Shown here in pieces: positions 1 to 25,353 of a DNA stretch of 31,889 nucleotides. Position 1 is the stretch's first letter; the number at the start of each line of letters is the position of its first letter. A program made the position numbers and the translations under genes. The stretch covers positions 1 through 31,889 of the forward strand of contig CALANS010000122.1 of the NCBI GenBank assembly GCA_937926105.1, in the 5' to 3' direction. Below the pieces are notes generated by a model, which was given only the letters and a program-made list of their open reading frames with translations, was not told where the DNA came from and did no database searches. Origin of the DNA: an uncultured Actinomycetes bacterium. GTDB taxonomy: Bacteria; Actinomycetota; Actinomycetes; Mycobacteriales; Nakamurellaceae.

Positions 1-55
1 GCGCGCTTCGTTCGCATCGAAGAGGTCAGGGGTTCGATTCCCCTCAGCTCCACCA
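1..55 (+). tRNA. tRNA-Ala (anticodon CGC), 3' part only
   Basis: The window opens inside a tRNA at about standard position 22. The anticodon stem CTTCG/CGAAG (6-10 with 18-22) closes the loop TTCGCAT with anticodon CGC at 13-15. The T arm is AGGGG-TTCGATT-CCCCT (28-44), the acceptor 3' strand is CAGCTCC (45-51), A73 is base 52 and CCA (53-55) is encoded. Acceptor position 70 is T, which fits the G3:U70 alanine identity pair, although the 5' strand is not visible. The T arm and acceptor shown here were probably supplied by the integrated element (see attL). A tmRNA 3' end was considered because it also ends CAGCTCCACCA, but the perfect anticodon arm argues for a tRNA. Confidence 0.85.
7..53 (+). 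repeat. attL, tRNA 3'-end direct repeat
   Basis: This copy matches 15237-15283 at 44 of 47 positions. The first 21 bases (7-27, anticodon arm and variable region) are identical, so strand exchange probably took place there. The three differences (28 A/G, 31 G/A, 41 C/T) all lie in the T stem. The changes at 31 and 41 are compensatory: the pair is G-C here and A-T in the right copy. In site-specific integration the sequence 3' of the crossover at attL comes from the element, so the functional tRNA now carries the element's T arm and encoded CCA. Confidence 0.85.
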
Positions 56-381: not shown

Positions 382-1533
382 TCAGTCTCGGTGCTGTCGC
401 GTGGCGGCGCGCTGCAACGCGGCGGCGACCTGGTCGAGGTCGTCTGGGAAGAGATCTGCGTAGGTGTCGAGCGTCATTGCGGCGGATTTGTGGCCGAGCA
501 TTGTCTGCACGGCCTTGACGTTCGCTCCGGCGCTGATGGCCAGCGACGCAGCGGTGTGGCGGAGATCGTGAGGACTGACCCGGGGGAACGTCGGATCGGC
601 GCCCTGGCAGCGTTTCACTGCGGGAACGAAGTGACGGGGCCTGAAGTCCGACACGCGCAGCTCCCCACCCTTCGGCCCGGTGAAGACAAGGTCCTCGCGT
701 CCCTTGCCGTCACATTCGGCGGCGATCTGGTCATCGAGGAATTGGGGATAGGGCACGGATCGGCGTTCGTGGGTTTTCGGTGTGGAGTAGACCAGTTCGC
801 CGCGCACCTCGGCGACGGCGCGGCGAACGTCGATTCGCCGGCGCGTTGGTTGGATGTCGCCGACTCGCAGGGCGGCCATCTCGCCCCAGCGCAGCCCGGT
901 GTAGGCGAGCAGCCGCACGATCGTGCCGTAGGTCGGTTGCGGCATGTATTTCGTGTAGCCGGTCTTAAATGTGATCGGCTGGGTCGAGATCTCCGCCGCG
1001 AGGGCGGCAACCTGGGCGTGAGTGAGGTATCCGCGCTCGCTGTGTCCGCGGCGTGGGGGCTTCACGCCCTTGGTCGGGTCGCGGCCCAGCCTGTGGTCCT
1101 CGATGGCATATTCGAGGATGCCGCGCAGCACACGCAGCGCGACCTCGATGGTCGCCGGGCCCGTGCCGTTGCTGGCCATGGTGGCCACCCAGGCGCGTAC
1201 CGCAGGCGTAGTGATCCCGGAAACGGGCACGGATCCCCACCTGGGTGCGACGTGGACTCGCCACGCCGTGTCCTGTTTCGCCTCCGTCGATGACTTGAGA
1301 CGAGCATGGGTGTTGGTCCAGGCGGCGTGCATTTCGGCGACCGTCGTGCTGCCGGCGGTATCCGACACGTAGTCGCCGCGAATTTTCGCCGATTCGACAT
1401 TGGCGGCGAATGCCTCGGCTTCACGCTTGGTGCGAAAGCCACGCTTGTCGGTCTGCCTGCCTTCCGGGTTGCGGTACCGCACGCGGTAGCGCGTTTCTCC
1501 CGTCGAGAATTTGTAGCGTTCGATGGTTGCCAT
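382..1533 (-). CDS. int: tyrosine recombinase (integrase)
   Basis: A 383-residue tyrosine-family integrase that would integrate and excise this element at the tRNA-Ala 3' end. Residues 1-60 look like an AP2-like arm-binding domain (RYRVRYRNPEGRQTDKRGF region). Residues 64-150 are the SAM-like core-binding domain, and 165-383 the catalytic domain with R215 (TGLRWGE), K253, H322 and R325 (HDLRH), H348 (LGHKS) and nucleophile Y358. All catalytic residues are present, so it looks intact. The ATG at 1533 was chosen over an upstream in-frame start because its A is shared with the excisionase stop (TGATG), a coupling arrangement. The gene reads toward attL, as is usual for tRNA-targeting elements. 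Confidence 0.95.
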   Translation of the reverse strand: MATIERYKFSTGETRYRVRYRNPEGRQTDKRGFRTKREAEAFAANVESAKIRGDYVSDTAGSTTVAEMHAAWTNTHARLKSSTEAKQDTAWRVHVAPRWGSVPVSGITTPAVRAWVATMASNGTGPATIEVALRVLRGILEYAIEDHRLGRDPTKGVKPPRRGHSERGYLTHAQVAALAAEISTQPITFKTGYTKYMPQPTYGTIVRLLAYTGLRWGEMAALRVGDIQPTRRRIDVRRAVAEVRGELVYSTPKTHERRSVPYPQFLDDQIAAECDGKGREDLVFTGPKGGELRVSDFRPRHFVPAVKRCQGADPTFPRVSPHDLRHTAASLAISAGANVKAVQTMLGHKSAAMTLDTYADLFPDDLDQVAAALQRAATRQHRD

Positions 1534-1727
1534 CAGTGACTCGCGGCCTTGGTGAACAGGTTCGCTTCGATCCACTCGTCGAGGTCCTGCGGCCGATACC
1601 GGATCGATCGCCCGCTGACCCGGACGAACCGTGGTCCGCTGCCGAGGTACCGAAGTTGTGCGAGCGCGCCTTTGGTCATCGCGAGGAGGTCACCAGCCTG
1701 TGCGGGGGTGAGCAGTTGCTCAGTCAT
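1533..1727 (-). CDS. xis: excisionase-like helix-turn-helix protein
   Basis: A 64-residue MerR/excisionase-type winged helix: LLTPAQAGDLLAM is the helix-turn-helix, followed by the RYLGSGPRFVRVSGRSIRY wing and the DLDEWIEAN helix seen in 'helix-turn-helix domain 17' proteins. Such proteins bend attachment-site DNA and bias recombination toward excision. Its stop overlaps the integrase start by one base, so the two are probably translated together. Upstream, at 1770-1796, is a 27-nt sequence repeated just before the relaxase gene, suggesting shared control of excision and mobilization. Confidence 0.85.
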   Translation of the reverse strand: MTEQLLTPAQAGDLLAMTKGALAQLRYLGSGPRFVRVSGRSIRYRPQDLDEWIEANLFTKAASH

Positions 1728-5043: not shown

Positions 5044-5152
5044 GATGTCGGGAGATTGCGGGCCCGATCATCCAGGCCGGAATCATTCGCCCAGCACGAC
5101 GAGTTCATGCAGCTCAAGGAGGCACGAACCGCCCGTGACGCATAATGTCGGC

Positions 5153-6283
5153 ATGAGGGCCACTGCGAAGGCGCTGCACGCGAAGGCGCTTTCTTCCATG
5201 CGCACGGCGATGGCCGCCTTCAACAGTCCTCACGACGACGGCAGACCCACGGTTGTTCTCCTCCACCTTCAGCATGCGTTCGAGATGCTCATCAAGGCGG
5301 CACTAGTCCAAGGGAGCGTCAAGGTCTTCGACAAGAAGTCCGGCCGCAGCATCGGATTCGAGGCAGCGGTCAACCAGTCCTGTCAGCTTGCGGGCGTCAA
5401 GGTCACCCAGGACGAGGCAGGGACGCTACGGGCGATTGACGCCCTTCGAGACGATGAGCAGCACTGGTTCAACGATGTCTCCGAGGGCTTGCTCTACCTC
5501 CATGCTCGGGCAGCAGTGACCCTATTCGACGAGTTGCTGCTACGCGCATTTAACCAGCGACTGGCCGACTACCTTCCCAACCGTGTACTTCCAGTCTCGA
5601 CTGAGGCTCCTCAAGACATCCTCACGCTCGTGGACAGCGAGTATGCAAACATTGCCGGGCTCCTCCACCCCGGCCGCCGGGCGCGCGGGGAGGCACGTGC
5701 CAAGATTCGCACACTCTTGGCGCTTGAGGCGCACGTTGCTGAGGACACGAAGGTCAGCGATGCCGACGTGAATCGCGTCGAGCAAGGCATCAAGTCGGGC
5801 AAGACTCGCCAGCAGGTCTTCCCGAAACTGAGCCCCCTCGCGGCCGACATCAGTGGGGAGGGTCTGACGGTCAAGGTGAGGATCGTCAAGCAGCCAGACG
5901 CGTTGCCGGTGCGGCTGGTGCGTAACGACGAAGACGGTGAGGTCATCGACGCAGCAGCAGTCCGGGAAGTGGATCTCCAGAAGAAGTTCCACTGGTCACC
6001 CTTCGAACTGGCCGACAGGTTGAGCATCACGCGACCCCGAGCGACTGCCCTCCGCGAGCATCTGGGCATTGACCAAGATGCCAGCTGTCTGCACGTTTTC
6101 GTATTCGGATCACAGAACCACCCGCGCTACTCAGACAACGCGTTGACCCGCATGCGTGAAGCGCTCGCCACGCAGGATATGGATGCAATCTGGAAATCGC
6201 ACGGCCAAGGCCGTCGATCGAAGCCGCGGCCCCCATGCGCCCAGCCCGACTGCGCCGCTGGGATGGGCCAGAAGGCGTCGTAG
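5153..6283 (+). CDS. DUF3644-like protein with HEPN-type R-x4-H motif
   Basis: A 376-residue protein that I place, from memory, with DUF3644. The N-terminal helices include HLQHAFEMLIKAAL (38-51), and residues 99-104 read RDDEQH, which fits the HEPN ribonuclease motif R-[NDH]-x3-H. HEPN proteins are common RNA-cleaving effectors in toxin-antitoxin and phage-defence loci. The C-terminus (about 295-345) looks like a winged helix that could bind nucleic acid. A CATAAT box ends a few bases upstream of the ATG, suggesting a leaderless transcript. An in-frame GTG at 5135, 12 bases after AAGGAGG, is the alternative start. It is the first cargo gene and is divergent from traA. RNase activity is inferred. 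Confidence 0.65.
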   Translation: MRATAKALHAKALSSMRTAMAAFNSPHDDGRPTVVLLHLQHAFEMLIKAALVQGSVKVFDKKSGRSIGFEAAVNQSCQLAGVKVTQDEAGTLRAIDALRDDEQHWFNDVSEGLLYLHARAAVTLFDELLLRAFNQRLADYLPNRVLPVSTEAPQDILTLVDSEYANIAGLLHPGRRARGEARAKIRTLLALEAHVAEDTKVSDADVNRVEQGIKSGKTRQQVFPKLSPLAADISGEGLTVKVRIVKQPDALPVRLVRNDEDGEVIDAAAVREVDLQKKFHWSPFELADRLSITRPRATALREHLGIDQDASCLHVFVFGSQNHPRYSDNALTRMREALATQDMDAIWKSHGQGRRSKPRPPCAQPDCAAGMGQKAS

Positions 6284-6445
6284 CGATCACATGGAGCGGG
6301 TCGCCGGGAGGCGAGCCTGCATTTTCCGGCACCGGCGACCGAGATGCAGCGTCGTTGAGCGTGATCCAACGCGGGCGGTAGGCGTCTCGCGGCTCTTCTG
6401 GGGTCGGCACACATGTTCTCAAACAACCTCGGTCATACTGGGGCA

Positions 6446-6895
6446 ATGACGCACGCTTCCGCCCCCCAGGTTGTCAGTATTGGCTACGAGGGCCGGAGCG
6501 CTTCTGAACTCGTAGAAGAATTGCGCGCTCAGCGGGTCGCTGTCCTGGTAGATATTCGGCTGACACCGATCTCGCGCAAGCCGGGTCTTTCAAAGACTGC
6601 GCTTGCTGCAGCTGTTCGGGCAGCGGGCATCGATTATGTGCACTTACGCGAGTTGGGTAATCCCAAGTCCAACCGTCCTGGGTATCGAGCTCGTGAGTCG
6701 GAAGCGTTGGATCTTTACGGCGCGATACTGAGTTCAGCCGGCGGGCAGTCTGCACTACGACATGTCACTGAACTGCTCGATGGTGGAGCGGTAGCTTTGC
6801 TGTGCTTCGAACGCGATCACGCGGATTGTCACCGGCACCAGGTTGTCGATGAGCTGGGCGCACGATGCGAGGATCTGCAGGTCACCTACGCGTAA
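6446..6895 (+). CDS. DUF488 family protein
   Basis: A 149-residue protein with the DUF488 signature: SIGYEGRS (11-18), VDIRLTPISRKPGLSK (35-50), VHLRELGNP (65-73) and the C-terminal LLCFERDHADCHR (118-130) with C120, C128, H129 and R130. The family is widespread and its biochemistry is poorly known; a catalytic or metal role for the Cys-His cluster is inference. The ATG at 6446 is preceded by CATACT six bases upstream, a probable -10 box of a leaderless transcript. It converges with the gene at 6903-7733, leaving seven bases between the stops, and the two may form one functional unit. Confidence 0.85.
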   Translation: MTHASAPQVVSIGYEGRSASELVEELRAQRVAVLVDIRLTPISRKPGLSKTALAAAVRAAGIDYVHLRELGNPKSNRPGYRARESEALDLYGAILSSAGGQSALRHVTELLDGGAVALLCFERDHADCHRHQVVDELGARCEDLQVTYA

Positions 6896-6902
6896 GGCGC
6901 GC

Positions 6903-7733
6903 TCAGTCGAATAGAGGGGCTTCGATCGTGCCGGGGCGTTCGACCTTGGGCGACCAAACTCCCAACGCAGAAAACGACGCTCGGTGTTGGTGAAAGTTGC
7001 CCACGAACAGGTGCGTGTCGACGCTCTCGTCGAACAGTGACTCGTACTTGTCCAGCAACATCTGCTTGGCTCTAGCCGGTCCCTTCTCTCGAGACCATCG
7101 TCGTCCCGCCTGTCCCGTTTCCCAGTCCAGCAACGACGGCTGGTGCCCCGGGCAGGCTGGCGCGCCGCAATGGTACTTAATGCTTACACGGAACGGCGCG
7201 GGCTGAAGTTCACGAAATCCGGTCGGGTTGAACAGATCCGGTTGGGCAGCCCTGACCGCCTTGGACAGTTGACTCGCGTCCCAGGGTTCGCCGTCCGCGA
7301 TCCTGACTTCGACGTGGCTAACCTTCACGAGACCGAGGGATGGTGCGGATTGCGAGTAGTCCACAGCCTGATTGGCAGCGATCAGTTCGCAGGTGGTCGT
7401 TGCGCCTATCAGCGGTCGGATCAGGTCGCGCCGTTCCGCCCAGTTCCGAGCAGTGCCGACTTTCCGGATGGAGCGCATGCGCGTCTGGTCAGGGCGCATC
7501 GACTCGAGACGTGGATCCGCACCACCGTGTGGAACCACCGGGATCTCGAGAATCTCATATTTGGCGAACTGCTGCTCGTAGTCGACTAGCCGAAACCTCA
7601 TCGGATAGAGGCGAATCCACTTGGGCACTCCATCGTCCAGTCTGACCCCGGCGACGCATACGGTCTCGCCATACTTGTCCGATGGACTGGGGTAGGTTTT
7701 GACGGTCACGAGCACGGTCGCTGTCTCCGTCAT
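6903..7733 (-). CDS. uncharacterised zinc-motif protein convergent with DUF488
   Basis: A 276-residue protein of unknown function. The N-terminal half (VLVTVKTYPSPSDKYGETVCVAGV, then WIRLYPMRFR) is a recognisable conserved block that I associate from memory with proteins encoded beside DUF488. Residues 187-205 hold a compact cluster, C189-x4-C194-x2-H197 followed by LLDWE (201-205), which could be a zinc site next to acidic catalytic residues. A nuclease role is possible but unproven. The ATG at 7733 has AGGAGG about ten bases upstream, and an upstream in-frame start lacks this. No signal peptide or membrane segment is visible. Confidence 0.6.
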   Translation of the reverse strand: MTETATVLVTVKTYPSPSDKYGETVCVAGVRLDDGVPKWIRLYPMRFRLVDYEQQFAKYEILEIPVVPHGGADPRLESMRPDQTRMRSIRKVGTARNWAERRDLIRPLIGATTTCELIAANQAVDYSQSAPSLGLVKVSHVEVRIADGEPWDASQLSKAVRAAQPDLFNPTGFRELQPAPFRVSIKYHCGAPACPGHQPSLLDWETGQAGRRWSREKGPARAKQMLLDKYESLFDESVDTHLFVGNFHQHRASFSALGVWSPKVERPGTIEAPLFD

Positions 7734-7924
7734 TAAGATTGCGTCCTCCTGCCCGGAAACTGGGTACCGGCTGTTAACTGATTGAAGGGTAGACGGAACC
7801 ATTGGCCTGCGCGACATCGTCGCCCCACGAGACCACGATTCCTTCGGCGCCCAAAAATAGCGGAGTTCTCGCCGTGGCTCGAAGGCGCTGCCGGGCAGAT
7901 TGGTGACGCCGCAGGGTTCGCCTG

Positions 7925-12690: not shown

Positions 12691-12718
12691 GTACACGAGT
12701 TACCGTCGAGTCGTACAC
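12691..12718. promoter_or_regulatory. repeated GTACAC boxes upstream of RHH gene
   Basis: GTACAC occurs at 12691-12696 and again at 12713-12718, start to start 22 bases (about two helical turns). They lie 50-80 bases upstream of the ribbon-helix-helix gene, a likely position for autoregulation. TACACT at 12714-12719 could serve as a -10 box. Confidence 0.35.
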
Positions 12719-12768: not shown

Positions 12769-13011
12769 ATGGAAAAGCCCGTTACCGTGCGCCTGCCCGA
12801 AAGTCAGGTGCGCCAGCTGATGGCGCTGGCCGTTGTTGACGACGTGAACCTGGCGCAGCTGCTCCGCGAGGCAGTCAGGGACTACGTGGATGCGCGCTTC
12901 AGGGACAAGGCGGAGTTGACGGCTAAAGCACAGGCCGCAAGAGTGCGCCAGGAGAACGTGCTGGAAGGTCTGGAACTCGCTGTAGTAAATAGCGCTGCGA
13001 GGTCCCATTGA
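12769..13011 (+). CDS. ribbon-helix-helix (CopG-like) DNA-binding protein
   Basis: An 80-residue protein with an N-terminal ribbon-helix-helix: KPVTVRLPESQVRQLMALAVVDDVNLAQLLREAV gives one strand and two helices. It resembles CopG/ParD-type antitoxins and regulators. The C-terminal tail (RFRDKAELTAKAQAARVRQENVLEGLELAV) is helical and could contact a partner. GGAAGGAG precedes the ATG at good spacing. It leads a three-gene run with the IMPase-like gene 18 bases downstream, so it may be the regulator or antitoxin of that unit. Confidence 0.75.
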   Translation: MEKPVTVRLPESQVRQLMALAVVDDVNLAQLLREAVRDYVDARFRDKAELTAKAQAARVRQENVLEGLELAVVNSAARSH

Positions 13012-13029
13012 ATCTGGTAAGACACACGT

Positions 13030-14010
13030 ATGGATTCGGAGACGCTGCATACTGCTGTGGTCAACGCTGTGGCAGATGGGCTCGAGTTCGCGCAGCGGCA
13101 CCTTCTTCACGGAGACCGGACGTTGCTGGCGGACTCATGGTCTCCGGGCGACCTGCCTGCCGATGAGCGGGAACGGCTGCTGCAGTTGCTGATCAGCCAG
13201 CAAGACTTCAGTGAGGCCGAGGTCGCGAGGCATCTCGGTGAGGCCCCGATTCCGGCGGACAGACGTACGCACCTGATGATTGTCGATTCGCTGCGGCAGC
13301 ACTTCCCGCATTGCTACGTCGTCGGCGAAGAGGCGTCGGACAACGAGTGGGATGCAGCAGTCGACGCGCCTCAATCCTCCCTCATCTTTCAGATCGACGC
13401 GATTGATGGTTCGTTGCCATACGACAGCCTCACTTTTGGCTTCAGCGTGAATCTCTTGGCCTTCGAGCGAGGTCCTGGTTTCGCTCGTGACAAACTCCTA
13501 TTGGCGGCAGTTATCAATTCGAGCGGCTTTCTGGCATTGTATGAACAGGGCTTGGGCGCCTCGATCGGTACGCCAACCGAATTGACGCTCACTACTGAGC
13601 CCTTGGACGATGAGTTCCGTATCGACAGCGTCGCTGCGTTAGGTGCGTTGCCGCGCCATCGGTCTCTGATTTCAGGAATTTTGCGGGATGACGCGCTGAC
13701 GATCTTCACGACTGCGGGCGCGCCAGCAGCGATGGGCCTCATAGCCGGTCGGTTAGCGGTCCTCGTCGCGACCAAGCCGCAGACGCTGCACGATGCTGCG
13801 TTCCTTCCCATCGTTGCGGCTCTGGGGATCCCCATCTTGGTTGATGGCGGCGTTGTGCTTGGAATGGGAGATGTTGAGCAGCTATTTTCGAGCGTCGCCC
13901 GCAAGCGCACGGACCGCGAAGCGCACCCGATTCCACGTTTCGTCGTCGCGCGCAATCCGGTCGTCGGAGCAACGCTGGCACGAACACTGTTCAGCGAACA
14001 GGGCTCGTGA
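13030..14010 (+). CDS. inositol-monophosphatase-superfamily protein
   Basis: A 326-residue protein with the metal-binding signature of the Li-sensitive phosphatase superfamily: GEE (99-101), DAIDGS (123-128, usually DPIDGT), TTAGAPAAMGLIAGRLAVLV (228-247) and HDAA (254-257, usually WDxAA). The active-site aspartates are kept, so it could be catalytic, removing phosphate from an inositol phosphate, a sugar phosphate or a 3'-phosphonucleotide such as PAP. The N-terminal 40-80 region is unlike housekeeping members. The gene sits between an RHH regulator and a membrane protein on a mobile element, not in a metabolic operon. Its stop overlaps the next start (TGATG). The substrate is unknown. Confidence 0.8.
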   Translation: MDSETLHTAVVNAVADGLEFAQRHLLHGDRTLLADSWSPGDLPADERERLLQLLISQQDFSEAEVARHLGEAPIPADRRTHLMIVDSLRQHFPHCYVVGEEASDNEWDAAVDAPQSSLIFQIDAIDGSLPYDSLTFGFSVNLLAFERGPGFARDKLLLAAVINSSGFLALYEQGLGASIGTPTELTLTTEPLDDEFRIDSVAALGALPRHRSLISGILRDDALTIFTTAGAPAAMGLIAGRLAVLVATKPQTLHDAAFLPIVAALGIPILVDGGVVLGMGDVEQLFSSVARKRTDREAHPIPRFVVARNPVVGATLARTLFSEQGS

Positions 14011-14765
14011 TGGCCAAGGCCCTGCCCATGCTGCGCCTGAAGTACGGCGCACTGCTGGCGGGGGCACTGCTGATTCTCGCGGGTGGTGTCTGCTTCTTGG
14101 TTGCGTATGCGACCGCCTCGCCACTTGCGCAGACCATGTGGAGCAACGTTGGCGCTGCCTTGATTACGACTGGCCTGATTGGCGTCATTTACGATTCCAT
14201 GCTCAAACCCCGCATGCTTGCCGACATCAAGTCAAGCTTGGACATTGACCGCTGCAAGGTGAATGCGATTGCCGCCGTCGCGGAACTGCCGGTGAGTAGG
14301 TGGCGACCGCGGCACAGTGACGTCTTGGTCATCACGCCGAGTGTCGCCGAGTGGTTGCGGCAAGGGGACTGGCATTACTTATGCGCTGAGGCGCGGGCGA
14401 GCACACTCGTGGTCAGGGTCTACGGGCATCTCGATGACGGGTCGGATCAGGCAGTTCGCGATGCGGTCGCGATCGCGTGGGCGGACGCCGGCGCCAATGG
14501 GGTGTCCGCTGCTTCTCGTGGCAGCACGGTAGTGATTTTCGATCACCCGGGCGCGGCGCAAGTGTCGCTGTATCGAAGCGGTGACGCCGCAATTGTGGGC
14601 TTCGACGCGCCCTTCGCCGACTACCTTCCAGGAGCAGCTGTCGGCCTGCAGATTTCACGAAGCGACACGGAACTGTGGCAATGGGTTCTCGGCGTGGAGA
14701 CCCGAGTGGCTTTACGGGCGCGGCAGGTCTGCCGCGTCCCCCATGCCGCAGGTACCTGGAGGTAG
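14010..14765 (+). CDS. two-helix membrane protein with cytoplasmic domain, unknown
   Basis: A 251-residue protein. Two transmembrane helices lie at about 12-34 (GALLAGALLILAGGVCFLVAY) and 45-62 (NVGAALITTGLIGVIYDSML); the remaining 190 residues form a soluble, alpha/beta-looking domain that I do not recognise (HSDVLVITPSVAEWL, STLVVRVYGHLDD, STVVIFDH, AAIVGFDAPFADYLPG). The ATG at 14010 shares its A with the stop of the phosphatase gene (TGATG); a GTG one codon earlier is possible. Membrane-anchored partners are typical of abortive-infection effectors, but no known effector motif is visible. Confidence 0.65.
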   Translation: MAKALPMLRLKYGALLAGALLILAGGVCFLVAYATASPLAQTMWSNVGAALITTGLIGVIYDSMLKPRMLADIKSSLDIDRCKVNAIAAVAELPVSRWRPRHSDVLVITPSVAEWLRQGDWHYLCAEARASTLVVRVYGHLDDGSDQAVRDAVAIAWADAGANGVSAASRGSTVVIFDHPGAAQVSLYRSGDAAIVGFDAPFADYLPGAAVGLQISRSDTELWQWVLGVETRVALRARQVCRVPHAAGTWR

Positions 14766-15236: not shown

Positions 15237-15283
15237 TTCGTTCGCATCGAAGAGGTCGGGAGTTCGATTCTCCTCAGCTCCAC
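15237..15283 (+). repeat. attR, displaced host tRNA-Ala 3' end
   Basis: This copy keeps the anticodon arm, variable region, T arm and acceptor strand but has no 5' half. Its T stem carries A52-T62 where attL has G-C, and G49-T65 where attL has A-T, so the stem still pairs. CCA is not encoded (CACT). A strong hairpin follows directly at 15284, as expected downstream of a real tRNA gene. I infer that this is the original chromosomal 3' end pushed aside by integration. Confidence 0.85.
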
Positions 15284-15391: not shown

Positions 15392-15486
15392 TCTCCTCAG
15401 CTCCACCACGTTTGACCTGCGGAAATAGGTTTTTTCGAACGCGTTCTAGACGCGTTTCTCGGGCGCGTGCCCACATTTTGCCCACG
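15392..15486 (+). mobile_element. stranded end of a second, related element
   Basis: TCTCCTCAGCTCCACCA (15392-15408) repeats the tRNA 3' end with the attR-type T62 but with CCA. A paired GCCCAC motif follows 59 bases later (15467-15486), the same order and spacing as in attL (CCA at 53-55, motif from 112). No integrase or other gene of a second element follows, so this looks like a solo left end after deletion. A short palindrome, AACGCGT-TCTAG-ACGCGTT, lies at 15438-15456. Confidence 0.5.
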
Positions 15487-15878: not shown

Positions 15879-16409
15879 CTACTCGCCGCCGTAGAAGGGG
15901 TGACGGAGAGTCTCACGCGCGGCGACGAGGGTGGCCCTTGCCTCGGCGTGCTCGTCGGCGACGATCTCGCGCAGCGCCGCGTTCATGGCTTGTCGCGCGG
16001 CGTTCTTGACGGTCGTCTCGTTGGTGGCGGCCCCGTCGACCCAGAGCGAGACCAGCAGGAGCGTGTCCTGGTCGGGCTCGGTCAGGCCGTCCGCCACCAC
16101 GTCGAGAACTCCCTGCGCGATGCCGACCGGCGCCGCCCCGAAGATCAAGGTCTCGTGGATCCCCTCCATCGCACGAGACTTCGTGAGGATCACCGTGGGC
16201 GGGTTCAGCGTCACGTACGAGGGCTGGTCCTCCCCGACGCAGGCAAGCACCGGCGTGTAGCCATCAGTCGGGGAGGTGAAGGCCGTGGTGATGGCTGCGG
16301 CGGTCGCCGAACCGCGTCGAGCGGCGAGCACGTTGAGGTGAACGCCGTTCGGGGCCAGGCCGCCCCATCCCTGTGCGATGCGCCCGTCGATATCGGTTCT
16401 GCGGGTCAT
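15879..16409 (-). CDS. formaldehyde-activating enzyme (Fae) homologue
   Basis: A 176-residue Fae-family protein. NGVHLNVLAARRGS aligns with the Fae N-terminal block and keeps the conserved histidine (H24), VTLNPPTVILTKSRAMEGIHETLIFGAAPVGIAQGVLDVVADG is the central helix-rich block, and the end reads LRHPFYGG (ATHPF in methylotroph Fae). True Fae condenses formaldehyde with tetrahydromethanopterin, a cofactor most actinobacteria lack, so the substrate here may be a different aldehyde or carrier. It is the last gene of the operon, 23 bases after the kinase, with GGAG before the ATG. Its presence suggests that the pathway releases formaldehyde or a similar C1 unit. Confidence 0.8.
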   Translation of the reverse strand: MTRRTDIDGRIAQGWGGLAPNGVHLNVLAARRGSATAAAITTAFTSPTDGYTPVLACVGEDQPSYVTLNPPTVILTKSRAMEGIHETLIFGAAPVGIAQGVLDVVADGLTEPDQDTLLLVSLWVDGAATNETTVKNAARQAMNAALREIVADEHAEARATLVAARETLRHPFYGGE

Positions 16410-16432
16410 GGTGATTCTCCAGTTTTCTCTGA

Positions 16433-17848
16433 TCAGTTGTTCGGAGTGGGGACCGGACTGTCCCCGGACAGCATCCGGAAGAGCGGGTCGGTATAGGCGG
16501 TAACCTGCGCGTATCGCTCCGCGAGGGCGGCGTACTGCGCCGATTCCGCCGCGGTCGGCACCTTCACCGTGTCGACATGGACCATCCGCGCCACGGCCTC
16601 ACGCCAGCCGGGGAAGGCGCCAACGCCGACCGCGGCGGTGATCGCGGCGCCGAGCCCGGCGGCGTCCGGCACGGCCAGGCGTTTCGCCGGGATGCCGGCG
16701 AGGTTGGCGACGATCTGCAGCATCAGCTCGGATTTGGATCCGCCGCCCGAGACGATGAGATACTCCGGCGCGACATTCAACGCACCGATGAGCCGCGCGA
16801 GATGCCCGTGCATCGTGAACGCGATGCCCTCCAGGAGCGCGCGGTAGATCGCGCCCCGCCCTTGTGTCCCGTCGAAGCCGAGCAGCGCCCCGCGGCGGTA
16901 GGGAGCGTCCGTCGGTGCCAGCCAGTCGAGGATGGCCACCAGACCGCCGCTGCCGGCGGGCACGAGTTCGGCTTCGGCGCCGAGTTCCTCGTCCGTCACC
17001 CCGTCACCGAGGAGCTCACGGAACCAGCTGGCAGTCCACATGCCGCGGCGGATGCCGTGGCTCTCGTAGAGGTACTGGCCGGGGATCGCCCCGAAGTTCC
17101 GCCAGCCGGCGTCGCCGAGTTCCTGTGGCCTATCCGCGACGATCATCGCTGCGATGTAGGTACCCAGCGACAGCAGCGCCGCCGACGGTCCGAGCAGGCC
17201 GCTGCCCAGTGCCTCGACGGCCTTGTCATTCGAGGACGTGAAGACGGGTAGCCCGGCCGGCAGCCCGGTCGCAGCGGCGGCGTTCGCAGTCAGATCACCG
17301 GCCAGGGCCCCGGGGTCGACGAGGGCGAACAAGATGTCCCTTGGCATGCCGGTCCGCTCGAAGGCGGCGTCGTCGGCGGACCATCGCCAGGTGCTCTGGT
17401 CGATGGGCCACACACCCTGATAGTTGCCGGCGGTGTCAACGAATCGGCCGGTCAGCCGGTGTGTGATGTATCCGCTGGACGTCGTGATCCATTCCACCGC
17501 CGGGTCGAGGTCGGTGACGCCCCGGGAGACACGCGCATCCATCCAGCTGAGCATTGGTTCGGTGAGCCGGCCGGCCCCGTCCAGGTAGGCGCGACAGAAC
17601 CGGATGGTACACAGCCCGATCGCGGCGATGTCGCGCACTCGGTCGCCCAGCTCTTGGGCAACCGCGCGACAGGCCGTAGCGATCGAGTCCCACACGTCAT
17701 CGCCGGGATGCTGAACCCGTCCACCGGGGCCGAGCACGGTTGCCCGCAGCGGTACGCGCGCCGAGGCGACGACCGTGCCGTCGCGGTCGATCACCGCGAC
17801 CTTCGTACTCTGCGATCCGTTGTCGATCGCCAGGAACAGGTCACTCAC
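16433..17848 (-). CDS. FGGY-family carbohydrate kinase (YgcE-like)
   Basis: A 471-residue FGGY kinase that phosphorylates a polyol, ketose or sugar-acid-like substrate. The ATP/phosphate-1 loop is at 7-15 (IDNGSQSTK), the central substrate region contains VFTSSNDKAVEALGSGL and LSLGTYIA, and the C-terminal signature GGGSKSELMLQIVANLAGIPAKRL is clear. Length is normal. The GTG start overlaps the stop of the FAD oxidase gene by eight bases. Together with the adjacent oxidase and SDR it matches the E. coli trio ygcE-ygcU-ygcW, whose substrate is, to my knowledge, not established. Kinase specificity cannot be read from sequence. Confidence 0.85.
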   Translation of the reverse strand: MSDLFLAIDNGSQSTKVAVIDRDGTVVASARVPLRATVLGPGGRVQHPGDDVWDSIATACRAVAQELGDRVRDIAAIGLCTIRFCRAYLDGAGRLTEPMLSWMDARVSRGVTDLDPAVEWITTSSGYITHRLTGRFVDTAGNYQGVWPIDQSTWRWSADDAAFERTGMPRDILFALVDPGALAGDLTANAAAATGLPAGLPVFTSSNDKAVEALGSGLLGPSAALLSLGTYIAAMIVADRPQELGDAGWRNFGAIPGQYLYESHGIRRGMWTASWFRELLGDGVTDEELGAEAELVPAGSGGLVAILDWLAPTDAPYRRGALLGFDGTQGRGAIYRALLEGIAFTMHGHLARLIGALNVAPEYLIVSGGGSKSELMLQIVANLAGIPAKRLAVPDAAGLGAAITAAVGVGAFPGWREAVARMVHVDTVKVPTAAESAQYAALAERYAQVTAYTDPLFRMLSGDSPVPTPNN

Positions 17849-19316
17849 CGTTGGCCCGCGGGAAGATCGAGCCGGGGTTCATGATGCCGTTCGGATCGAA
17901 GTGGTGCTTCAGGCCGGCGAGGAGCGGATAGGCGCTGCCGTGCTCCTGTCGAATCCACGGCGTGCGGTATTTGCCGACGCCGTGGTGGTGCACCATCGAC
18001 CCGCCCAGCCGCAGCGCCTCCTCGACGATGATCGCGTTAAGCGGGATGTGGTATTCGTTGATTTCGTCGCGCGGCGCGCAGTGGATGTCGTAGTCGTAGA
18101 CGAAGTAGAGATTCGTGCCGTTCTGATAGCTGTGTGACGAGTGGCCGCCGAGCATGGTCAGGTCGGCGGCGCGCGGGAATTCGGACCGAATCCGGGACAT
18201 CACGGCGTGGTAGAGCTCGGCGACGTGCGACCAGGACACGGAGACTTCGGTCGTGTAGCCGAGGTGCGAGTTTGCGAGCATCTGCTCCTTCTCCGCCTCG
18301 ATCTTGTCGACGCCCCAATTGAGGTCGGCGAACCAGCGCTCGATCAAGGCGTTGTCGACCCGGCGGTGCGGCACACCTTCGAACAGCTCCTCGATGGCCT
18401 GAGCAGTGGCATCTGCGAGCGGCTTCGGCCCCTCGGCGACGAGAACTATGACGTTGTCCTCGGGCCCGGCGAAATGCGCGAAGTGCTGCTGCGCATCCTG
18501 CGGGGAGTACAGGCGGCAGACGCTCGGTCGGTATCCCGCCGTGATCAGGTCATGCAACGCGTCCACCCCGGCGGCGAAATCGTCAACCAGGAAACCGAAA
18601 TAGCGATTGTTGTCGGGGTAGTACCGGAACACCTTTACCGTCACCTCGGTGACGAAACAGAGGGCGCCTTCGTTGCCGATGACGATATGACGGATATCGG
18701 GCCCGGCCGCCCGCCGCGGCACATTCTTGATCCGGGCGACGTGGCCGTCCGGCAGCACCGCTTCGAGCCCGACGACCATGTCCTCGATCCCGCCGTAGAG
18801 CGTGGAGAACTGGCCGATGGAGCGGGTCGCGACGAGGCCTCCGTATTGGGCGAGCGGCTTGGACTGAGGGGAGTGGCCGGTCGTCAGCCCTACGCCGCGC
18901 AGCTGCTCTTCGAGCGCCTCCAGCCGGACGCCGCACTGGACGGTGGCTGTCATGTCGCGCTCGTTGACGACCAGGATGCGATCCATGCGGGACCCGTCGA
19001 GCACGATGCTGCGCGGCGTGACGATTTCCAGTCCGCCCTCGGTGCTGGTGTGCCCGGTGCGGGGCACCACGGCGATGCGGTGCTCGTTGGCGTAGGCGAG
19101 CACCCGGCTGATGTCGGCGGTGCTGGTGGCGTAGACGACGGCCATCGGAAGCGGGCCGTCATATATGTCGTGGACCGCGGTGTACTTCTTGAATCGATCG
19201 ACGCTCGACTCGCGCAGTTCCGATGGGTCGGTGTGGACGTTGTCCGCGCCGAGCATCGACGCGAGCATGCGGACATCGTCACCGTGCGACGTGTCGGGGA
19301 GGGCGGTCGGAGTCAC
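17841..19316 (-). CDS. FAD-linked oxidase of the VAO/PCMH superfamily (YgcU-like)
   Basis: A 491-residue flavoprotein related to alkyl-dihydroxyacetone-phosphate synthase. The FAD-binding half contains VVPRTGHTSTEGG, then ATVQCGVRLEALEEQLRG, TTGHSPQSKPLAQYGGLVATRSIGQFS and IVIGNEGALCFVTEVTVKV. The cap and C-terminus carry LGGHSSHSYQNGTNLYFVYDYD and the histidine triplet motif MVHHHGVGKYRTPW, ending in FDPNGIMNPG. I recall E. coli YgcU as nearly collinear. The likely reaction is oxidation of a hydroxyl of the imported or phosphorylated substrate. The GTG start has AGAAG upstream; 82 bases separate it from the SDR gene before it. Confidence 0.88.
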   Translation of the reverse strand: MTPTALPDTSHGDDVRMLASMLGADNVHTDPSELRESSVDRFKKYTAVHDIYDGPLPMAVVYATSTADISRVLAYANEHRIAVVPRTGHTSTEGGLEIVTPRSIVLDGSRMDRILVVNERDMTATVQCGVRLEALEEQLRGVGLTTGHSPQSKPLAQYGGLVATRSIGQFSTLYGGIEDMVVGLEAVLPDGHVARIKNVPRRAAGPDIRHIVIGNEGALCFVTEVTVKVFRYYPDNNRYFGFLVDDFAAGVDALHDLITAGYRPSVCRLYSPQDAQQHFAHFAGPEDNVIVLVAEGPKPLADATAQAIEELFEGVPHRRVDNALIERWFADLNWGVDKIEAEKEQMLANSHLGYTTEVSVSWSHVAELYHAVMSRIRSEFPRAADLTMLGGHSSHSYQNGTNLYFVYDYDIHCAPRDEINEYHIPLNAIIVEEALRLGGSMVHHHGVGKYRTPWIRQEHGSAYPLLAGLKHHFDPNGIMNPGSIFPRANGE

Positions 19317-19398
19317 TGACGTCTTCTTTCGTCTCGATCATAGGCGGCAGTCCGGCGCCGCCACTGCTGCCTCGCGTTGGTCGTTCGGTGGCTCTCGG

Positions 19399-20175
19399 TC
19401 ACCGGACGAGATAGCCGCCGTCTACGACGACGACATGTCCACTGACGTAGTCGGAGGCGCGCGAGGCGAGGAATACCAGGGCTCCCATCAGATCGGCGGG
19501 CTTGCCCCAACGGCCTGCGGGGATGTGCTCGATGATGCGGCGATTGATGTCCGCGTCGGATCTGCTGCCCTCCGTCAGTCGGGTCTCGATATATCCGGGT
19601 GCAATTGCGTTGACCTGGACATTGTGCTGCCCCAGCTCGTCGCAGTAGGCCTTCGTGAACCCGACGATGCCAGCCTTGGTCGCCGAGTAGGCGGGCGACA
19701 TTTGGCCCCCGAGGAATGAGAACAGCGACGCAATGTTGATGATCTTGCCGGATCGCTGCGCCATCATGACGCGCGCCGCCTCGTGACCGAGTTCGAAGGC
19801 GGCGGTCAGGTTGATCGCGATCATCGGATCCCATTTCGAGCGATCGAAGGATTCGACGTCATCGATGAGGCAGATGCCGGCGGAGTTCACGAGAATGTCA
19901 ACGCTGCCGAAGGTCTCGACGCAGCCGGCAACGATGGTTGCCGGCTGTCCGGGTGCGGTGATGTCGGCGTCGACGACCTCAATGCGGCCGCCGCCCGCCG
20001 ACACCAGGGCGGCGGTCGTCCCGCCGTCATTGGTGATGCTGGGCGCGTACACGTTGGCGCCGGCGGCCGCGAGCGCGAGGCTGAAGGCCTGCCCGAGTCC
20101 GGTGTTGCCTCCCGTGACGATGGCGTTCTGGCCTGCGAGCGAGAACAGGTCGAGCGAGAAGTCGGTGATTTCCAT
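19399..20175 (-). CDS. short-chain dehydrogenase/reductase (YgcW-like)
   Basis: A 258-residue classical SDR. The nucleotide motif is TGGNTGLGQA (21-30), the structural motif NSAG (97-100) replaces the usual NNAG, and the catalytic residues are S150, Y163 and K167 (SPAYSATKAG). The N-terminal lead (MEITDFSLDLFSLAGQNAIV) and the C-terminal VVVDGGYLVR match what I recall of E. coli YgcW, often annotated as a deoxygluconate-dehydrogenase-like enzyme. It would oxidise a secondary alcohol with NAD(P). It begins three bases after the aldehyde dehydrogenase stop, so the two are co-translated. Confidence 0.88.
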   Translation of the reverse strand: MEITDFSLDLFSLAGQNAIVTGGNTGLGQAFSLALAAAGANVYAPSITNDGGTTAALVSAGGGRIEVVDADITAPGQPATIVAGCVETFGSVDILVNSAGICLIDDVESFDRSKWDPMIAINLTAAFELGHEAARVMMAQRSGKIINIASLFSFLGGQMSPAYSATKAGIVGFTKAYCDELGQHNVQVNAIAPGYIETRLTEGSRSDADINRRIIEHIPAGRWGKPADLMGALVFLASRASDYVSGHVVVVDGGYLVR

Positions 20176-20178
20176 GGT

Positions 20179-21639
20179 CTACTCCGCGTCCGGATCGGTG
20201 AGATGGATGCCCATATAGACGGTCTCGAGGTATTCCTCGATGCCTTCGACGCTGCCCTCGCGGCCCAGACCGGACTGCTTGATGCCGCCAAACGGCGCCG
20301 CCGGGTTGGAGACGAGGCCGGTGTTCACGCCGATCATGCCCGCCTCGATGCGCTCGCCGAGGCTCAGCGCGCGGTTGATGTCCCGCGTGAAGACGTAGGC
20401 GACGAGCCCGAAGTCGGTATCGTTCGCCAGCGCGATGGCTTCCGCGTCGGTGTCGAAGGTGACGATCGGGGCGACCGGGCCGAAGATCTCCTCGCGCAGG
20501 ATGCCGGAGCCGGCCGGTACCTGCCCGAGAACCGTTGGCGGGTAAAAGAATCCGGGGCGCTCAGGGGCGGTGCCGCCGGTCAGAACCGTGGCGCCGTCGG
20601 CGACAGCGGCGTCGACGAGTCGGGTCACCTTCGCGACGGCGCGGTCGTCTATCAGTGCGCCGAGCCCGACGCCGTCCCGCAGGCCGGGGCCCATCTCTAT
20701 CGCGCCCAGCGCAGCCGCAAGACGCGCCGCGAACTCATCGGCGACCGATCGATGCACGATGAAGCGGTTGGCGGCGACGCACGATTCGCCGCCGTTGCGC
20801 ATCTTCGCGACCACAGCGCCGGCGACGGCCGCATCGAGGTCGGCGTCGGCGAACACCAGGAACGGTGCGTTGCCGCCGAGCTCCATCGATACCCGCAGCA
20901 CCGTGTCGGCCGACTGGGCGATGAGCAGCTTCCCGACCGGGGTGGAACCGGTGAAGGAGAGCTTGCGCAGCCGTCGGTCCTTGATCATCGGACCGGTCAC
21001 CTCGCCGGGCCGGGTGGTCGGGATGACGTTCAGCACCCCAGCGGGTAGACCCGCCTCCCCCATGACCTGCGTGAACAGTAGCGCGGTGAGCGGCGTGAGC
21101 TCGGCGGGCTTGAGCACCATGGTGCATCCGGCGGCGACGGCCGGCCCGATCTTCCGCGTCGCCATGGCCAGCGGGAAGTTCCACGGCGTGATGAGCAGCG
21201 CCGGGCCGACCGGCCGTTTCACCGTGAGGATGCGATTCGACCCGACCGGCGCCGGGAGGTAGCGGCCGGCGACCTGCGGTGCGAGCTCGGAGAACCAGCG
21301 CAGGAATTCGGCGCCGTACACGACCTCGGCCCGGGATTCGGCGAAAGGTTTGCCCATCTCCAACGTCATGAGCGTGGCGAATTCGTCGATGCGGGCCAGC
21401 GTCATCTCGTAGGCCCGCCGCAGAATGTCGGCCCGCTCGCGCACCGTAGTGCGGCCCCAGTCGCCCTGGGCGCGAACGGCGGCGTCCAGCGCTCGCGTCC
21501 CGTCGTCGGCGGCGGCGTCACTGACCTGAGCAAGGACCTCCTCGGTCGCCGGGTCGTGGACGGGGAAGAGTGCCCCGCCGGTGGCGTCCACCCAGCGGCC
21601 GTCGATGTAGAGCTGAGTGGGTGTATACGGGCGCGTCAT
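20179..21639 (-). CDS. NAD(P)-dependent aldehyde dehydrogenase (GabD-like)
   Basis: A 486-residue aldehyde dehydrogenase near the succinate-semialdehyde dehydrogenase branch. Visible landmarks are LLITPWNFPLAMATRKIGPAVAAGCTMVLKPAE (cofactor pocket), LSFTGSTPVGK, the general-base glutamate in MELGGNAP, and the catalytic cysteine in NGGESCVAANRF. The EIFGPVAPI and PFGGIKQSGLGREGS motifs complete the fold. It would convert an aldehyde intermediate to the acid. Its ATG overlaps the upstream dehydrogenase stop (ATGA). The exact aldehyde is unknown; the neighbouring GarR-type enzyme could reduce or produce the same semialdehyde. Confidence 0.92.
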   Translation of the reverse strand: MTRPYTPTQLYIDGRWVDATGGALFPVHDPATEEVLAQVSDAAADDGTRALDAAVRAQGDWGRTTVRERADILRRAYEMTLARIDEFATLMTLEMGKPFAESRAEVVYGAEFLRWFSELAPQVAGRYLPAPVGSNRILTVKRPVGPALLITPWNFPLAMATRKIGPAVAAGCTMVLKPAELTPLTALLFTQVMGEAGLPAGVLNVIPTTRPGEVTGPMIKDRRLRKLSFTGSTPVGKLLIAQSADTVLRVSMELGGNAPFLVFADADLDAAVAGAVVAKMRNGGESCVAANRFIVHRSVADEFAARLAAALGAIEMGPGLRDGVGLGALIDDRAVAKVTRLVDAAVADGATVLTGGTAPERPGFFYPPTVLGQVPAGSGILREEIFGPVAPIVTFDTDAEAIALANDTDFGLVAYVFTRDINRALSLGERIEAGMIGVNTGLVSNPAAPFGGIKQSGLGREGSVEGIEEYLETVYMGIHLTDPDAE

Positions 21640-22571
21640 GCCGTCGCCGCCTGCTGCTCAGCAAGCCGAAGTGGGCGACTGGTGAGGTCCTCATAAAGCT
21701 GGAACGGCGTCATCTCGCCGGCCGTCTCGCCATACTGGGCCAGCGCCCGCCGGTAGATCTGCTCGACGATCGCGGACAGTTCCACCGGGACACCCACCGA
21801 CCGCGACAGGTCGATTGATAAGCCCAGATCCTTGCAGGCCAGGGCGACGGCGAAGCCCTCGTCATAGTCGCCGTGATCGAGGATCGAGAGCACGTCGTTC
21901 TCCAGGAAGTTGCTGTTGGCCGGGCTGGCGATGAGCGACCGGCGCAGCACGGCGAGGTCCACGCCGGCGGCGACACCGGTGGCCAGCACCTCAGCCGTCG
22001 CGATGAGATGTGAGAACCAGAGTTGGTTGATCATCAGCTTGACGGCGTAGCCGGCGCCGTGGCCTCCGACGTGGATGACGCGGTCGGCATTGCCCATGGC
22101 ATTGAAGACGGGGCGCAGCCGAGCGAAGTCTTCCGCGTCGGCGCCGACGAAGATCTGGAGCGTCCCGTTGGCCGCGCCCACCGCCATACCGGAGACGGGC
22201 GCATCGACTACGTGCAGATCGAGCGAGCGCGTGGCGTCGATGACCCGGCGCTCCACCTCGGGGACAGAGGTGGACATGTCGATCCACGTCGCCCCCGACC
22301 GGATCCCTTGCAGGACACCGTGGTCGCCGAACAATGCAGCGTCGACGTCGGTGGGCCGCGGCAGCATCGTGATGACGATGTCCGTCTGCGCCGCCACCTC
22401 GGCGCCGGTCGCAGCCCATCGTGCGCCGGCATTGACGGCGTCACGGCCGGCGTCGTCCCTGCGATCCGAGACGACGAGCGGGAACCCCGCTTTCTGCAAA
22501 TTGGCGACCATGCCAGAGCCCATGTGGCCGAGGCCGATGAACCCGACCGTGGGGAGGTGTTGCTCGTTCAC
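21636..22571 (-). CDS. 3-hydroxyisobutyrate/tartronate-semialdehyde-type dehydrogenase
   Basis: A 311-residue beta-hydroxyacid dehydrogenase. The Rossmann motif GFIGLGHMGSGMVANL opens the protein, the substrate-binding block DAPVSGMAVGAANGTLQIFVGAD follows, and the catalytic lysine lies in GYAVKLMINQLW; KDLGLSIDL is the C-terminal helix motif. It interconverts a 3-hydroxyacid and its semialdehyde. The GTG at 22571 was chosen because GAAGGA lies directly upstream; a GTG five codons earlier is less well placed. It is the first enzyme gene after the transporter genes, with a gap of about 135 bases, and overlaps the aldehyde dehydrogenase. Confidence 0.9.
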   Translation of the reverse strand: MNEQHLPTVGFIGLGHMGSGMVANLQKAGFPLVVSDRRDDAGRDAVNAGARWAATGAEVAAQTDIVITMLPRPTDVDAALFGDHGVLQGIRSGATWIDMSTSVPEVERRVIDATRSLDLHVVDAPVSGMAVGAANGTLQIFVGADAEDFARLRPVFNAMGNADRVIHVGGHGAGYAVKLMINQLWFSHLIATAEVLATGVAAGVDLAVLRRSLIASPANSNFLENDVLSILDHGDYDEGFAVALACKDLGLSIDLSRSVGVPVELSAIVEQIYRRALAQYGETAGEMTPFQLYEDLTSRPLRLAEQQAATA

Positions 22572-22708
22572 AAATCCTTCTTTCACTGTCTATTTCGAGA
22601 AAATCGCACTGCCGCAGCACGTCTGGACCAACCGAGACGGAGTCATCGATGACGGCGGCGCCGTACGGCGCGAAGGCGGCTGGGTCGGTCCTTCCGTGAT
22701 CCGGCCCG

Positions 22709-23413
22709 TCATGCCGCAGCCGGCTGGGGGAGCGCCACGCGGTTGCGGAAGATCAGCCCCGTTCGGCGCATCGGCGCCGGCGTGACGGTGCGCTGCACCA
22801 GGCCGAGCACAATCTGCACGGCAAGTGCCAAGGCGACGACGAGAATCGCGCCGCCCACCTGCTCGCCGGGCAGGTTGCTCGCATAGGCGCGAAACACGAT
22901 CTGGCCTAGCCCGCCCGCGCCGGCATAGCCCGCGATTGTCGCGACTGCCACGATCTGCACGGCCGCGCTCCGTATGCCGGACGCGATCAGCGGCACGGCC
23001 GACCGGAGTTCGACGCGCCACAGCACGCCCCAGTGCCCCATTCCGATGCCGCGTGCCGCCTGCACCGTGGCGCTGTCGGCCTCGGCCACGCCGGTGTAGG
23101 CGTTCGTGAGCACTTGCGGCAGCGCGAACAGGACGAGCGTCGCGGTCAGGGTCGCGAAATTGAGTCCCCAAGCGCTGACCGCGAAGATGACGATCACGCC
23201 GAACGATGGGACCGCGCGGCCCAGGTTCGCCAGCCCCAGCACGATGACCGAGCCGCGGTGGAAATGCCCCAGCGTGACACCGAGCGGGAGCGCGATCACC
23301 ACGACGATCAAGAGCGCGAATCCGCTGAACGCCACGTGTTCGCGGATGAGGTTCAGGATTCCGTCGGAGCCCCAGTAGTTCTCCGATGACGTGAGATACG
23401 ACCACCAGCTCAT
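22709..23413 (-). CDS. OpuC-type ABC permease
   Basis: A 234-residue inner-membrane permease of the osmoprotectant/quaternary-amine uptake family. Several hydrophobic helices are clear (FALLIVVVIALPLGVTLGHF, FGVIVIFAVSAWGLNFATLTATLVLFALPQ, VVALALAVQIVLGLVQ). The coupling loop reads AARGIGMGHWGVLWRVELRSAVPLIASGIRSA, the EAA-like motif that contacts the ATPase. The ATG at 23413 overlaps the stop of the first permease (ATGA). Together with that permease it would form the heterodimeric channel. Confidence 0.88.
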   Translation of the reverse strand: MSWWSYLTSSENYWGSDGILNLIREHVAFSGFALLIVVVIALPLGVTLGHFHRGSVIVLGLANLGRAVPSFGVIVIFAVSAWGLNFATLTATLVLFALPQVLTNAYTGVAEADSATVQAARGIGMGHWGVLWRVELRSAVPLIASGIRSAAVQIVAVATIAGYAGAGGLGQIVFRAYASNLPGEQVGGAILVVALALAVQIVLGLVQRTVTPAPMRRTGLIFRNRVALPQPAAA

Positions 23414-24105
23414 GTGCCCACCAACCCTTGCTGACGATTCCAACGGGTCACATTGCGGCCGATCGCCAGGATGATGAGGTCGAGCAGGATCGCGAGGATC
23501 ACCATGCCGATGACGGCGTCGACGACCTGCTGTCGGTACAAATTGTTGGCGTATCCCAGCGTCATGATCTCACCCAGGCCGCCGTGCGAGAGGATGAAGG
23601 CCACCGGCACCATGGCGACGGTGCTCACCGATGCCATGCGGATGCTGGAGATGATGACCGGCATCGCGAGGCGGAGTTCCACTCGGGCGATCCGCCGGAT
23701 CTTGCCGTACCCCATGCCGTCGGCCGCCAGAATCGCCGAGTCGGGAACCGACCGGAAGCCCTCGACGAACCCGCGGACGAGGATCAGCTGCGTGTAGAGC
23801 GTCAGACCGATGATCGGTCCGAACAGGCTGAGTCCGGTGAACGGCAGCAGGATCGAGAACAACGCGATGCTGGGCAAGGAATAGATCCCGTCCATCAGGC
23901 CGATCGTGAAGTTCTCCGCGATGGGGAACCGCCTGATCACCAGCGAAATGGCGAAGGCCAAGACGATGCCGATCGCGACGCTGATGACCGTGAGCTCGAC
24001 CTGCTCGATCGCGCTGTGCAGATACTGCTGCCGCTGGCTTTCGTACTGGAAGTACTGCAACCCGAACCACGGGTTGTTGTCGCTGGCCGAAAGGACGTAG
24101 CTCAT
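23410..24105 (-). CDS. OpuC-type ABC permease
   Basis: A 231-residue permease partner. Helices include LTVISVAIGIVLAFAISLVI, LYSLPSIALFSILLPF-like segments and AVIGMVILAILLDLIILAIG. The cytoplasmic coupling loop is AADGMGYGKIRRIARVELRLAMPVIISSIRMASV. Its ATG overlaps the ATPase stop (ATGA), so ATPase and permease are translated in step. The extended periplasmic N-terminus (SASDNNPWFGLQYFQYES) is unusual in being aromatic-rich and may contact the binding protein. Confidence 0.88.
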   Translation of the reverse strand: MSYVLSASDNNPWFGLQYFQYESQRQQYLHSAIEQVELTVISVAIGIVLAFAISLVIRRFPIAENFTIGLMDGIYSLPSIALFSILLPFTGLSLFGPIIGLTLYTQLILVRGFVEGFRSVPDSAILAADGMGYGKIRRIARVELRLAMPVIISSIRMASVSTVAMVPVAFILSHGGLGEIMTLGYANNLYRQQVVDAVIGMVILAILLDLIILAIGRNVTRWNRQQGLVGT

Positions 24106-25340: not shown

Positions 25341-25353
25341 TCGACCCACAACC

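What the first reader, a model, noticed from the sequence alone, without database searches (positions are those of the whole stretch)
12769..14765. Candidate new cargo system: RHH regulator, IMPase-fold enzyme and two-helix membrane protein
Three same-strand genes are tightly packed (18-base gap, then a TGATG overlap) on a mobile element full of toxin and nuclease folds. The middle gene keeps the metal-site aspartates of the inositol-monophosphatase superfamily (GEE 99-101, DAIDGS 123-128, HDAA 254-257), an enzyme type I do not know from any described defence or addiction module. A membrane protein with an unknown 190-residue cytoplasmic domain follows. A phosphatase that edits a signal or a 3'-phosphonucleotide, coupled to a membrane effector and controlled by an RHH protein, is a testable model.
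Basis: partly seen in the sequence, partly recalled or inferred. Interest (0 to 1): 0.72.

Follow-up and report, generated by a model that had tools for sequence, protein, structure and literature searches.

The report
Element-borne phosphatase and membrane protein operon
A mobile DNA element in a bacterium carries three packed genes (a small DNA-binding regulator, a phosphatase of a rare and unstudied branch of the inositol-monophosphatase superfamily, and a membrane protein shorter than its relatives) that may form a new conflict or stress module, but what they do is not shown.

The parts
12769..13011 (+). RHH (CopG-type) protein, 80 aa; likely autorepressor or antitoxin-like partner
   Evidence: Pfam RHH_1 22.2 bits over cut-off 20.5; no plasmid tblastn match at E 0.01
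13030..14010 (+). IMPase-superfamily phosphatase of a rare clade, 326 aa; D77, E100, E101, D123, D126, D255 conserved
14010..14765 (+). Membrane protein, 251 aa: one strong and one weaker N-terminal hydrophobic segment plus a ~185-residue domain; lacks the C-terminal ~150 residues of its relatives
12691..12718 (+). Two GTACAC repeats 22 bases apart upstream of the RHH gene; possible operator (lead only, pattern picked after reading the sequence)
   Evidence: 1 match; shuffles mean 0.01, but post hoc; GTACAC alone is not enriched
1..53 (+). 3' part of a tRNA gene, left attachment site of the element
   Evidence: Rfam tRNA 36.1 bits, cut at the 5' end; repeat partner
382..1575 (-). Tyrosine integrase of the element
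   Evidence: Pfam Phage_integrase 6.1e-19, Arm-DNA-bind_4 3.4e-6
15237..15283 (+). Right attachment site: 47 bases, 93.6% identical to window 7-53

Best explanation
A three-gene cargo operon of a tRNA-integrated element, most likely a conflict-type (defence or addiction-like) module. Shown or strongly predicted: an RHH protein, a metal-dependent small-molecule phosphatase with the IMPase fold and all metal ligands kept, and a translationally overlapping membrane protein. Inferred: the RHH protein represses the operon; the phosphatase turns over a small phosphorylated metabolite (a 3'-phosphonucleotide, NADP or sugar/inositol phosphate are the substrate types known in this fold); the membrane-anchored domain senses that ligand or the phosphatase itself and disturbs the membrane when the level changes, for example when infection alters the nucleotide pool. 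The substrate, the partner contact and any toxicity are not shown.
Against: No PADLOC model matches the three proteins. The phosphatase relatives readable in context number one, and there the coupled gene is a PIG-L deacetylase, not a membrane protein, which also fits sugar/inositol metabolism. A Tetrasphaera MAG contig set has the membrane protein (P0015) but no phosphatase of this family came from it. The window's membrane protein is short and may be impaired. Phage and viral-contig searches found no relative.
Confidence: 0.38

Rival explanations
1. Metabolic cargo: the enzyme is an ordinary sugar-, inositol- or nucleotide-phosphate phosphatase that gives its host a catabolic, thiol-related or stress advantage; the membrane protein is an anchor or unrelated.
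For: IMPase-fold enzymes are mostly metabolic (recalled). The Mycolicibacterium homologue overlaps a PIG-L deacetylase gene by 4 bases (PIG-L 4.1e-18); phosphatase plus PIG-L deacetylase are successive chemistries in mycothiol synthesis (recalled).
Against: The family is rare: no relative from two patterned scans of 84,980 species genomes. No sugar or inositol gene lies next to it inside the element; the sugar-type genes at 15.9 kb onward are outside the right repeat.
Confidence: 0.27
2. Chance neighbours or decaying cargo: the RHH gene regulates something else and the membrane gene is a truncated remnant at the element's end, so there is no three-part system.
For: The membrane protein stops ~150 residues before the end of its three relatives and nothing resembling the missing part follows. 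P0015 appears without the phosphatase. RHH had no plasmid match.
Against: TGATG overlap, 18-base gap, and the equal-length single contig for P0002 and P0014. The 251 residues left are 54-56% identical to relatives with long invariant runs.
Confidence: 0.18
3. Type II toxin-antitoxin-like pair: the 80-aa RHH protein with its helical tail is the antitoxin and the phosphatase the toxin (for example by draining NADP or another phosphorylated cofactor); the membrane protein is an accessory.
For: Small RHH gene 18 bases upstream of an enzyme; NADP phosphatases occur in this fold, e.g. entries 5eyg and 4g61 among the matches.
Against: No known TA or PADLOC model is met; the Mycolicibacterium relative has no RHH gene directly upstream (only a weak RHH match, 0.0055, below cut-off, downstream).
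Confidence: 0.12

Closest known systems
IMPase superfamily enzymes: CysQ/Hal2 3'(2'),5'-bisphosphate nucleotidase, SuhB/IMPase, IMPase/NADP phosphatase, plant-type histidinol-phosphatase
   Different: 13-19% structural identity; separate clade with strong support (100/99); 326 aa with ~60 poorly modelled residues (about 21-80); DGS instead of DGT, HDAA more often than WDAA; operon with RHH and membrane genes
Fructose-1,6-bisphosphatase class I
   Same: DGSSN-type motif in the Mycolicibacterium-like clade; weak sequence match to FBPase 2 (0.015)
   Different: Below the FBPase Pfam cut-off where scored (13.9 and 15.1 against 34.8)
Panoptes (OptS/OptE) and other enzyme plus two-helix membrane effector defence pairs
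   Same: Two-gene idea: an enzyme that sets a small ligand and a membrane protein with a soluble domain (abstract of PMC12657218)
   Different: No nucleotide polymerase; a phosphatase instead; no sequence link shown between the membrane proteins
Fic / PIG-L / RES plasmid region of Mycolicibacterium pCBMA213_1
   Same: Distant family member (27.8%, E 3e-23) in a plasmid region with toxin-like genes
   Different: Coupled to a PIG-L deacetylase; no membrane partner and no upstream RHH gene

Membership tests
IMPase superfamily | IMPase/FBPase fold | tested here: met
IMPase superfamily | Metal-site residues (E of GEE, DxxDG, D of the late W/H-D-x-A motif) | tested here: met
   23 of 23 at E100, E101, D123, D126, D255; the first part aligned to SuhB/CysQ; the late motif is not in that alignment and rests on the fold and on 3 of 23 members with WDAA
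IMPase superfamily | Phosphatase activity | not testable with these tools
   needs enzyme assay
Pfam PF00459 Inositol_P as a sequence family | Curated cut-off 27 bits | tested here: not met
   window protein 14.2 bits, E 0.031; 13 of 23 members match at E <= 1, best 0.00063
CysQ 3'(2'),5'-bisphosphate nucleotidase (TIGR01331) | Curated cut-off 228.8 bits | tested here: not met
   17.0 bits
RHH/CopG regulators | PF01402 cut-off 20.5 bits | tested here: met
   22.2 bits
Type II toxin-antitoxin system | Small regulator-antitoxin gene directly upstream of a co-transcribed partner | tested here: met
   layout only; transcription not tested
Type II toxin-antitoxin system | Toxicity of the second protein neutralised by the first | not testable with these tools
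   bench test
Panoptes / CBASS | mCpol or other cyclic-nucleotide synthase gene | tested here: not met
   none of the three proteins matches one in Pfam or PADLOC
Panoptes / CBASS | Two-helix membrane effector with beta-rich ligand domain | tested here: inconclusive
   no family hit; model of the long relative too poor in this part
Known anti-phage systems in PADLOC-DB 2.0.0 | Match to a system protein model | tested here: not met
   RHH and phosphatase none; membrane protein only REase_II at 0.073; P0014, P0015, P0025 none

The most novel reading that the evidence does not exclude
The operon is an unrecognised defence module in which an IMPase-fold phosphatase, an enzyme class I know from no described defence system, guards or clears a phosphorylated signal and a co-translated membrane protein executes the response; long versions of the membrane protein add a C-terminal domain shared with a PIN nuclease.
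Probability: 0.2. Interest if true: 0.75.

Novelty: new variant of a known kind. Interest (0 to 1): 0.42.

Why it matters
If the pair works together, a phosphatase fold known from lithium-sensitive metabolism would join the list of conflict-system enzymes, suggesting that a small phosphorylated metabolite is monitored by a membrane protein. If not, the work still delineates a rare IMPase-superfamily clade, carried here on an integrative element and in one relative on a plasmid, with intact metal sites and unknown substrate.

Tried and rejected
Recurrence: genome contigs scanned twice with phosphatase alignments (45 and 41 pattern matches, none a relative), viral contigs four times (39, 61, 41, 22 matches, none a relative). 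These scans need short conserved peptides, so they do not prove absence. The membrane protein was never scanned in genome contigs (cap spent), so the Tetrasphaera context was not seen. Plasmids: phosphatase one record, membrane protein none, RHH none at E 0.01; phages: none for the phosphatase or P0025. The protein searches scored only the 7,996, 7,996 and 7,993 candidates sharing most words.

Promoter scan found none, inverted repeats upstream were unremarkable. The GTACAC repeat pattern was read off the sequence before it was tested, so one search is no fair test.

Literature: no paper of the held library has both 'inositol monophosphatase' and 'anti-phage' or 'bisphosphate nucleotidase' and 'phage defense'. 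Searches listed 20 of 977 and 15 of 583 papers, with no occurrence of 'inositol monophosphatase' in any listed; one search listed 12 of 14 papers, none on phage defence by title and abstract start. I saw the outline and abstract of PMC12657218, two passages of PMC11514479, and otherwise only search listings. Subscription papers and bioRxiv are not held.

Full report
What is there. Three + strand genes, 12769-13011, 13030-14010 and 14010-14765, are separated by 18 bases and then share a TGATG overlap. The RHH gene has a purine-rich ribosome-binding-type stretch (GGAAGGAG) ahead of its ATG. The operon has lower third-position GC (0.72, 0.68, 0.73) than the two flank genes compared (0.85, 0.88) and the integrase (0.79), as foreign cargo would.

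The element. The window opens inside the 3' half of a tRNA gene (Rfam 36.1 bits; ARAGORN, which needs a whole gene, reports none). Positions 7-53 recur at 15237-15283 with 93.6% identity. A tyrosine integrase on the minus strand lies at 382-1575. The unit of about 15.2 kb therefore looks like a tRNA-integrated element, and the operon is its last cargo before the right end. Three other cargo genes match PADLOC phage-defence-candidate models: 5045-6283 PDC-S19 (1.9e-160), 6903-7817 PDC-M19B (1.1e-39), and 6413-6895 PDC-M19A (6.1e-28, DUF488). PADLOC-type 'phage defence candidate' genes are computational candidates (two passages of PMC11514479).

The membrane protein. It has one strong and one weaker N-terminal hydrophobic stretch. 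Three relatives other than the window's own cluster were found (P0014-P0016, 54-56% identity, 398-401 aa); all carry about 150 more residues at the C terminus. No trace of that part follows the window's stop: tblastn of the C-terminal pieces gives nothing better than E 1.3 anywhere in the window. The extra domain (about residues 280-385) is found on a Streptomyces plasmid fused to a PIN_8 nuclease (38% over 106 residues, E 1e-14 pairwise; plasmid search E 1e-7; PIN_8 7.2e-56), and weakly, E 2e-3 to 5, in seven other plasmid records. No family is known for the conserved ~185-residue middle part, and it could not be modelled.

Recurrence. P0002 (phosphatase, 65%) and P0014 (membrane, 54%) both come from a single contig of 2965 bases of the same source, so they are very probably neighbours; I could not read the contig. 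No other row shows such a coincidence, but only the longest contig of each cluster is listed. Against an obligate pair: P0015 comes from a Tetrasphaera MAG (14 contigs, longest 1.84 Mb) and no phosphatase row bears that source or length. The RHH gene's recurrence is untested apart from one plasmid search without a match. The one readable phosphatase relative, on Mycolicibacterium plasmid pCBMA213_1 (27.8%, E 3e-23), overlaps a PIG-L deacetylase gene by 4 bases and follows a Fic gene with a 70-aa upstream gene. Two scans of genome contigs and four of viral contigs gave no relative.

How it probably works. Inference only: RHH autorepression; phosphatase action on a small phosphorylated compound; the membrane protein as reader or executor. 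The strongest arguments for a conflict role are gene packing, the company on the element, and the PIN-fused relative of the C-terminal domain. The strongest arguments against are the lack of any match to known systems, the PIG-L partner in the only readable relative, the unpaired P0015, and the short form of the window's own membrane protein. I give the conflict-type reading 0.38, metabolic cargo 0.27, chance or decay 0.18, an RHH-phosphatase toxin-antitoxin pair 0.12.

Novelty. The fold and the RHH class are known; the clade, its mobile setting and its coupling to this membrane protein I found in no held paper under the searches named. Hence a new variant of a known kind, with a more novel defence reading at probability 0.2.

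Noticed in passing
window 5045-6283 (+): Strong match to PADLOC candidate PDC-S19 (1.9e-160) with a weak DUF3644 match; a defence candidate on the same element.
   Followed up: no
window 6413-6895 (+) and 6903-7817 (-): DUF488 gene matching PDC-M19A and, facing it on the other strand, a gene matching PDC-M19B: a convergent pair resembling a candidate defence system.
   Followed up: no
window 15395-15413: A 19-base piece resembling the tRNA end (94.7%) lies ~110 bases beyond the right repeat, perhaps a remnant of an older insertion.
   Followed up: no
window 15879-25349 (-): Beyond the element: Fae-like protein, FGGY kinase, FAD-linked oxidase, aldehyde dehydrogenase and an ABC transporter ATPase with a CBS domain, probably host metabolic genes.
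   Followed up: partly
L002 4020-5381: Streptomyces plasmid protein joins a PIN_8 domain to the C-terminal domain seen in the long membrane relatives P0014-P0016.
   Followed up: partly
L001 8978-14506: Mycolicibacterium plasmid cluster with a 70-aa gene plus Fic, a phosphatase of this family overlapping a PIG-L deacetylase, and a RES gene.
   Followed up: partly
window 12691-12718: GTACAC direct repeat 22 bases apart upstream of the RHH gene, a possible operator.
   Followed up: partly
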